Source: Candidatus Latescibacterota bacterium
Lineage (GTDB): Bacteria; Krumholzibacteriota; Krumholzibacteriia; LZORAL124-64-63
Assembly: GCA_030658975.1 (NCBI GenBank)
Contig: JAUSBL010000093.1
Span: 1 to 64,000 of the forward strand
DNA length: 64,000 nucleotides
Direction of reading: 5' to 3'
How positions within the stretch are numbered: the first letter of the stretch is position 1; each line of letters starts with the position of its first letter. Under the pieces are notes generated by a model that saw only the letters and a program-made list of their open reading frames with translations, had not been told where the DNA came from and made no database searches. Made by a program: the position numbers and the translations under genes. Positions 49,277 through 49,852 of this stretch are shown here, in pieces.

Positions 49277-49618
49277 ATGAGCAAGCACCATGAAGGCCCC
49301 ACGTACGCCCACGTCGTGCCCGTCAGGACGCTGCTGGGCGTGTTCGGCGCGCTGATGTTCCTGACGATCCTGACCTACGCCGTGACCTACGTCGACCTGG
49401 GCGCCCTGAACATCTGGGTGGCCCTGGGGATCGCCCTGGTCAAGGGCACCCTGGTGGCCCTGGTCTTCATGCACCTGCTGTGGGACAAGAAGTTCTACGC
49501 CGTCGTGCTGATGAGCGCCCTGCTCTGCGTGATGATCTTCATCGGCATCGCCCTGCTCGACAGCGGACAGTACCAGGCCGACCTGATCCCTGATTTCGCC
49601 CCCGGAATCGTCCAGTAG
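49277..49618 (+). CDS. Cytochrome c oxidase subunit IV (CtaF/CyoD-like)
   Basis: Three TM, ALVKGTLVALVFMHLLWDKKFY; end of cox operon. Confidence 0.88.
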   Translation: MSKHHEGPTYAHVVPVRTLLGVFGALMFLTILTYAVTYVDLGALNIWVALGIALVKGTLVALVFMHLLWDKKFYAVVLMSALLCVMIFIGIALLDSGQYQADLIPDFAPGIVQ

Positions 49619-49852
49619 GCTCTGGCCGGGACATTGTCCCTGCCCATGCTATGTTGCGACTTGGATCCGCACATCCTGCCGAGACCGGGGACACGCTCCG
49701 GGCACCTCGTGTGCCCGGAGCGCTTGGCCTTCCGGCCCTTTCGCCATCCTGGCTTCAGGGCCTGCAGGACACCCCGGTCTCGGCAGGATGTGCGGATCCA
49801 AGTCGAACAGCAGCATGGGCATGGGAGGGACAATTTCCCGGCCAGAACCTAC
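49615..49852. repeat. 238-bp long imperfect inverted-repeat element, arms 49615-49690 and 49772-49852
   Basis: 34-bp perfect core arms CGACTTGGATCCGCACATCCTGCCGAGACCGGGG (49657-49690; reverse complement 49772-49805), near-identical outer arms, and an internal 12-bp stem (49694-49705/49711-49722). Confidence 0.9.

What the first reader, a model, noticed from the sequence alone, without database searches (positions are those of the whole stretch)
49615..49852. 238-bp near-palindromic element filling the gap between convergent genes
Seen: arms GTAGGCTCTGGCCGGGACATTGTCCCT...CGACTTGGATCCGCACATCCTGCCGAGACCGGGG and its reverse complement pair over about 76-81 nt, with 34 consecutive perfect bases, two mismatches in the outer 27 bases and one small indel. 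A second 12-bp hairpin (CGCTCCGGGCAC/GTGCCCGGAGCG) sits in the loop. The element begins on the stop codon of the last cox gene and ends two bases before the stop of the convergent phosphatase. It has no transposase. Candidates: a MITE or other non-autonomous element, a REP/BIME-like repeat, a long dsRNA-forming or bidirectional terminator structure, or a structured RNA.
Basis: partly seen in the sequence, partly recalled or inferred. Interest (0 to 1): 0.65.

Follow-up and report, generated by a model that had tools for sequence, protein, structure and literature searches.

The report
Stop-codon-anchored palindromic 3'-end RNA element
The palindrome is one copy of an apparently undescribed family of structured elements, present in two bacterial phyla, that sits directly after the stop codons of housekeeping genes such as infB and whose long stem changes its sequence freely because mutations in one arm are copied into the other.

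Summary
The palindrome is real (z = -17) and not single-copy. Its genome, a Krumholzibacteriota draft, holds about 50 copies. All share one architecture: an 81-nt core forming a three-way junction with two hairpins and near-invariant loops, closed by a 24-45 bp, almost perfect stem. The stem sequence differs between copies, and at nearly every position all four Watson-Crick pairs occur. Covariance models find it in 22 of 38 genomes of this family, one weak match in a second family, and 55 of 118 Eremiobacterota genomes, including a single-contig one. They find none in 151 Armatimonadota genomes; Rfam has no match. Elements lie in sense orientation after a gene (104:37), with the stem starting at the stop codon. 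Host genes recur across genera and phyla, above all infB. At orthologous sites arm changes are concerted (97 double against 62 single, 0.3 expected), mostly locus-unique, with almost no G-U pairs. This fits template-switch copying between arms. Best reading: a cis-acting structured 3'-end mRNA element, probably a stabiliser or insulator, whose stem is rewritten by DNA-level correction. The window copy belongs to a long-armed, MITE-like derivative. Function is inferred, not shown.

The parts
49615..49656 (+). outer left arm, starting on the TAG stop of the oxidase gene; contains the left side of a conserved asymmetric internal loop
   Evidence: pairs imperfectly with 49806-49852; shared with other long-armed (type A) copies
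49657..49690 (+). inner left arm, 34-bp perfect stem (P1)
49691..49771 (+). 81-nt conserved core (three-way junction)
   Evidence: CM R1 match 49667-49795, 137 bits, E 2.6e-31
49694..49722 (+). hairpin P2, 12 bp with UC[C/G]-type loop
49734..49762 (+). hairpin P3 with near-invariant CGCC[A/C]UCC-UGGC tip
49772..49805 (+). inner right arm, pairs with 49657-49690
49806..49852 (+). outer right arm
49277..49618 (+). upstream host gene: caa3-type oxidase subunit IV

Best explanation
This is a cis-acting structured element of the mRNA 3' end. The sense transcript of the upstream gene carries, from its stop codon on, a long stem (P1, 24-45 bp or more) closed by an 81-nt three-way junction whose two hairpin tips and junction strands are conserved across two phyla. 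SHOWN: architecture, covariation, sense orientation, start at the stop codon, recurrence behind the same genes, and concerted change of the two arms at orthologous sites. INFERRED: (1) at the RNA level it most likely protects and insulates the 3' end of well-expressed housekeeping messages, including inside operons, perhaps together with a factor that reads the conserved loops; (2) P1 stays perfect because replication template switching copies one arm onto the other, so its sequence drifts freely. The window copy is a long-armed type A member that spread in this genus with weak orientation bias, like a MITE.
For: At least about 50 copies in the own genome. Covariation over 44 elements: 95.6% of cells paired, 37 of 44 pairs with double changes, score 0.723 against 0.161 shuffled, 0/500. 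Arms: 3033 Watson-Crick, 26 G-U, 40 A-C and 61 other of 3160 pairs. Upstream gene sense 104:37 (p = 1.5e-8), 9:0 in the first Eremiobacterota genome, downstream gene 68:68; non-type-A copies 96:24, p = 2e-11. Stop codon to stem start: median 3 nt, IQR -2 to 7, n = 79. Host genes recur: infB in 4 Krumholzibacteriota genomes and 14 Eremiobacterota genomes, 13 of them sense; also tuf, ffh, atpG, typA, pyk, a glutamate-synthase-type gene. Orthologous sites: 97 double and 62 single arm changes (0.3 doubles expected if independent); 170 of 194 surrounding 13-mers unique to the locus; a paired 1-bp deletion in both arms (L102/L225). Template switching as maker and keeper of RNA stems is published (PMC8794818).
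Against: No transcript data; transcription and any RNA function are inferred. The near absence of G-U pairs is unusual for stems selected only as RNA, so part of the perfection needs no function. Orientation is not absolute: 37 of 141 are antisense or between divergent genes, and infB in G134 and atpG in G154 face an inverted element. At one orthologous site a relative simply lacks it and has a plain 8-bp hairpin. Many genomes of the same families lack it. Genes were called by a simple codon-usage script, not a standard gene finder.
Confidence: 0.6

Rival explanations
1. A purely selfish non-autonomous mobile repeat (MITE or REP-like) that prefers to insert directly after stop codons and has no host function.
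For: Many dispersed copies with 85-95% identity; patchy presence; an element-free orthologous site; type A copies 17:13 in orientation and some lie between divergent genes; cores within a genome resemble each other more than arms do.
Against: Recurrence behind infB in two phyla with unrelated arms; arms homologous at infB across genera, so the sites are old; no Y1 transposase gene in the genome; no target duplication visible in the one filled/empty comparison.
Confidence: 0.22
2. A DNA-level site: a cruciform-forming palindrome at gene ends that binds gyrase or a nucleoid protein or absorbs supercoils, as proposed for BIMEs.
For: Perfect Watson-Crick pairing with no G-U preference on either strand; location at transcription-unit ends and between convergent genes.
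Against: Strong sense-strand orientation and exact start at the stop codon; asymmetric conserved internal loop and junction strands.
Confidence: 0.1
3. A bidirectional transcription terminator.
For: Stable hairpin between convergent genes at the window site; the element-free relative has a simple hairpin at another convergent site.
Against: No T-tract after the window copy; stem far longer than needed; copies lie inside operons, e.g. after infB with a same-strand gene following; conserved loops unexplained.
Confidence: 0.07
4. An assembly artefact (inverted-repeat chimera).
For: Several contigs end in a copy; one contig of G003 begins inside the palindrome.
Against: Same sites in independent species and in a 3.5-Mb single-contig genome.
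Confidence: 0.01

Closest known systems
REP / BIME (repetitive extragenic palindromes) and RAYTs
   Same: Intergenic palindromes in many copies near gene 3' ends; proposed roles in mRNA stabilisation, termination and supercoiling (PMC3733652, PMC2817692 abstracts)
   Different: REPs are 20-40 bp with a conserved GTAG/CGTC tag; here an 81-nt three-way junction is conserved, the arms are not, the stem starts at the stop codon, and no Y1/RAYT gene was found in the genome
ERIC / RU enterobacterial repeats and bacterial MITEs
   Same: 103-168 bp (RU) or similar non-autonomous intergenic repeats
   Different: Those conserve their ends (own knowledge); here the centre is conserved and, outside type A, the ends are specific to the locus; found in two distant phyla
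Template-switch origin and maintenance of RNA hairpins (Monttinen and Loytynoja 2022, PMC8794818)
   Same: Multi-base compensatory changes made by copying one arm from the other
   Different: [quoted passage not shown] here dozens of independent long stems in bacteria show it between sister species
Intercistronic stabilising stem-loops, e.g. in the puf operon (own knowledge)
   Same: A stem-loop after one cistron of an operon protects the upstream message
   Different: A dispersed family with a conserved core, behind many unrelated genes
CsrB/RsmZ-type RNAs (own knowledge)
   Same: On the antisense strand the hairpin tips often read CAGGA(U/A/G)G and the genome has csrA
   Different: The orientation bias makes the other strand the mRNA strand; many P2 loops lack GGA

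Membership tests
REP/BIME | 20-40 bp palindromic unit with conserved GTAG or CGTC end tag | tested here: not met
   conserved unit is an 81-nt three-way junction with variable arms
REP/BIME | RAYT (Y1 transposase, PF01797) in the genome | tested here: not met
   no match in the own genome, 92% complete; control genomes matched
MITE | conserved terminal inverted repeats | tested here: inconclusive
   type A copies share outer ends (TAGGTTCTGGCC...); other copies do not
MITE | target-site duplication | tested here: inconclusive
   one filled/empty comparison shows none, but flank divergence is 14-19%
MITE | parent transposon with the same ends | not tested
   only PF01797 was searched
Intrinsic terminator | GC-rich hairpin followed by a T-run | tested here: not met
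   no T-run after 49852 in the window; only the window copy was inspected for this
Known Rfam RNA family | match at gathering score | tested here: not met
   no match for 20 loci from both phyla; window region only far below thresholds
Structured cis-RNA | covariation supporting one consensus structure | tested here: met
Structured cis-RNA | consistent sense orientation to the adjacent gene | tested here: met
   a bias, not absolute
Structured cis-RNA | transcribed and functional | not testable with these tools
   needs RNA-seq and mutants
Template-switch maintained palindrome | concerted, locus-unique changes in both arms | tested here: met

The most novel reading that the evidence does not exclude
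The core alone is a mobile unit that, on arriving downstream of a stop codon, generates its own arms by fold-back copying of the target sequence, so that each insertion carries a private perfect palindrome: an undescribed mode of insertion. Cores within one Eremiobacterota genome are 58-86% identical while their arms (37-51%) are only modestly above shuffled sequence (27-32%), and one element-free orthologous site has a different short hairpin.
Probability: 0.15. Interest if true: 0.9.

Novelty: new variant of a known kind. Interest (0 to 1): 0.74.

Why it matters
It would add a cis-element tied to translation and energy genes (infB, tuf, ffh, atpG, typA) in two little-studied phyla. It also gives dozens of parallel natural experiments on how long RNA stems stay perfectly paired, a question usually answered with slow G-U intermediates. 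Here double changes outnumber single ones between sister species and G-U pairs are almost absent, which makes template-switch maintenance of stems directly measurable.

Tried and rejected
Rfam: no match. RAYT/Y1 transposase: absent. CsrA sponge: csrA is present and antisense loops look like CsrA sites, but the sense bias and the many loops without GGA argue against it. Arms as pre-existing terminator hairpins: native hairpins in the window have stems of at most 12 bp and mostly do not start at stops. RNA-only compensatory evolution: rejected as the sole explanation because G-U pairs are not enriched. L102/L225 first looked like complete arm replacement; on inspection it is a paired one-base deletion. 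Perfect palindromes at contig ends (L082; the start of G003:C180) were set aside as possible artefacts. Viral contigs: two pattern hits, no arms. Other phyla: 14 of 15 genomes clean; the Capsulimonas hit is a different palindrome; 0 of 151 Armatimonadota. Literature searches found no description of such a family in these phyla, but only open-licence papers are held.

Full report
Window 49615-49852 is a near-palindrome with a perfect 34-bp inner stem (49657-49690 with 49772-49805), imperfect outer arms, and an 81-nt interior that folds into two hairpins. The fold is 17 standard deviations below shuffled sequence. It starts on the stop codon of a caa3-type oxidase subunit IV gene.

It is one member of a family. 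A search of the own genome (3.2 Mb, 133 contigs) gave tens of further places, and later searches with other members brought the total to about fifty. Folding and arm alignment show the same architecture everywhere: an 81-nt core, a closing stem of 24-34 perfect pairs, then in many copies an outer stem after an asymmetric internal loop. The core is conserved (mean identity 0.82). The arms are not (mean 0.48, many pairs of copies unrelated), yet they are complementary within each copy. Nearly every arm position uses all four Watson-Crick pairs across copies. Covariation on 44 elements is far above shuffled and slid controls.

Distribution: named matches are Krumholzibacteriota MAGs, including two that belong to the same genus as the window but were labelled Gemmatimonas or Fibrobacter by their submitters. 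A covariance model finds the element in 22 of 38 genomes of this family, one weak match in a second family, and none in the rest of the phylum. One pattern hit in Eremiobacterota led to ten copies in that genome and, with a second model, to 55 of 118 Eremiobacterota genomes. One of these, G088, is a single 3.5-Mb contig carrying copies, so this is not an assembly effect. Of 15 genomes from other phyla 14 were clean, and 0 of 151 Armatimonadota matched. Rfam has no family for it.

Position: with a simple codon-usage gene caller, the gene on the left of the element (the side of hairpin P2) reads towards it in 104 of 141 cases (p = 1.5e-8), while the right-hand gene is 68:68. Outside the long-armed type A the bias is 96:24. 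The stem begins at the stop codon: stop-to-core distance minus arm length has median 3 nt and IQR -2 to 7 over 79 elements, and in a first set of 42 distance and arm length correlate at rho 0.70. The + strand is therefore the 3' end, or the intercistronic part, of the upstream message.

Host genes: many are housekeeping genes and recur. Translation factor IF-2 (infB) carries the element in four Krumholzibacteriota genomes (L051, L240, L244, L246). In Eremiobacterota it does so in seven sampled genomes (L267, L281, L282, L294, L298, L306, L321); in L282 the element is inverted. In a direct test of 30 further element-positive genomes, 7 have it 14-30 nt after infB, all in sense. With 1-20 copies among roughly 3000 genes, chance would give well under 1% per genome. 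Others are tuf (L084, L301), ffh (L275, L283), atpG (L274, L280; inverted in L278), typA, pyk, guaA and a glutamate-synthase-type gene. Arms behind infB are recognisably related among three Krumholzibacteriota genomes and unrelated between phyla.

How the stem stays perfect: among 3160 arm pairs only 26 are G-U on the sense strand, 40 are A-C and 61 are other mismatches. If RNA pairing alone drove compensation, G-U intermediates should be common. At 49 orthologous pairs within the genus or nearly so (left flank at least 88% identical), 97 pair positions changed on both arms and 62 on one; independence predicts 0.3 doubles. The sequence around the double changes is unique to the locus in 170 of 194 cases, so most did not come from other copies by conversion. 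Examples: typA (L183, L194, L226) and a ribonucleotide-reductase-like gene named by eye (L195, L208: 5 double, 0 single over 30 positions); a paired one-base deletion in L102/L225. Template switching between hairpin arms is the published process with this signature (PMC8794818). Core exchange between copies also occurs: at the window site the sister species has the same insertion with another P2 hairpin (L001/L048).

Origin of sites: one site filled in two species is empty in a third, which has an ordinary 8-bp hairpin spanning the two convergent stops. No target duplication is visible, but the flanks differ by 14-19%, so this is not conclusive. Type A copies, to which the window element belongs, share outer ends, are weakly oriented and look like a recent MITE-like spread within the genus.

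Interpretation: a structured 3'-end or intercistronic mRNA element, most likely stabilising or insulating, whose P1 is maintained by arm-to-arm copying plus selection for pairing. The RNA function is inferred. The selfish-repeat reading remains the main rival and may be right for type A.

Noticed in passing
G000:C66 17.1-17.5 kb (L009), C55 18.1-18.5 kb (L010), C125 23.9-24.3 kb (L041); L049, L054, L095, L264, L276, L288, L311, L312: Elements often occur as close neighbours within about 200-800 bases, mostly in opposite orientation and usually with unrelated arms.
   Followed up: partly
L042 and L043 near 1000: Isolated right outer-arm pieces (GGGACAATTTC..GGCCAGAACC) without a core, next to ordinary hairpins: remnants or solo ends of type A.
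   Followed up: no
all elements, both hairpin tips: Tips often read CAGGA(U/A/G)G on the antisense strand, like CsrA sites; sense tips read UCC(U), complementary to Shine-Dalgarno sequences. csrA is present.
   Followed up: partly
L284 (G208, Armatimonadota) about 1500-1600: A different long palindrome just after a stop codon with CCAUCCUGG in its arms.
   Followed up: no
G003:C180:1-145: A contig that begins inside an element and is self-complementary beyond it: probable assembly artefact at a hairpin.
   Followed up: partly
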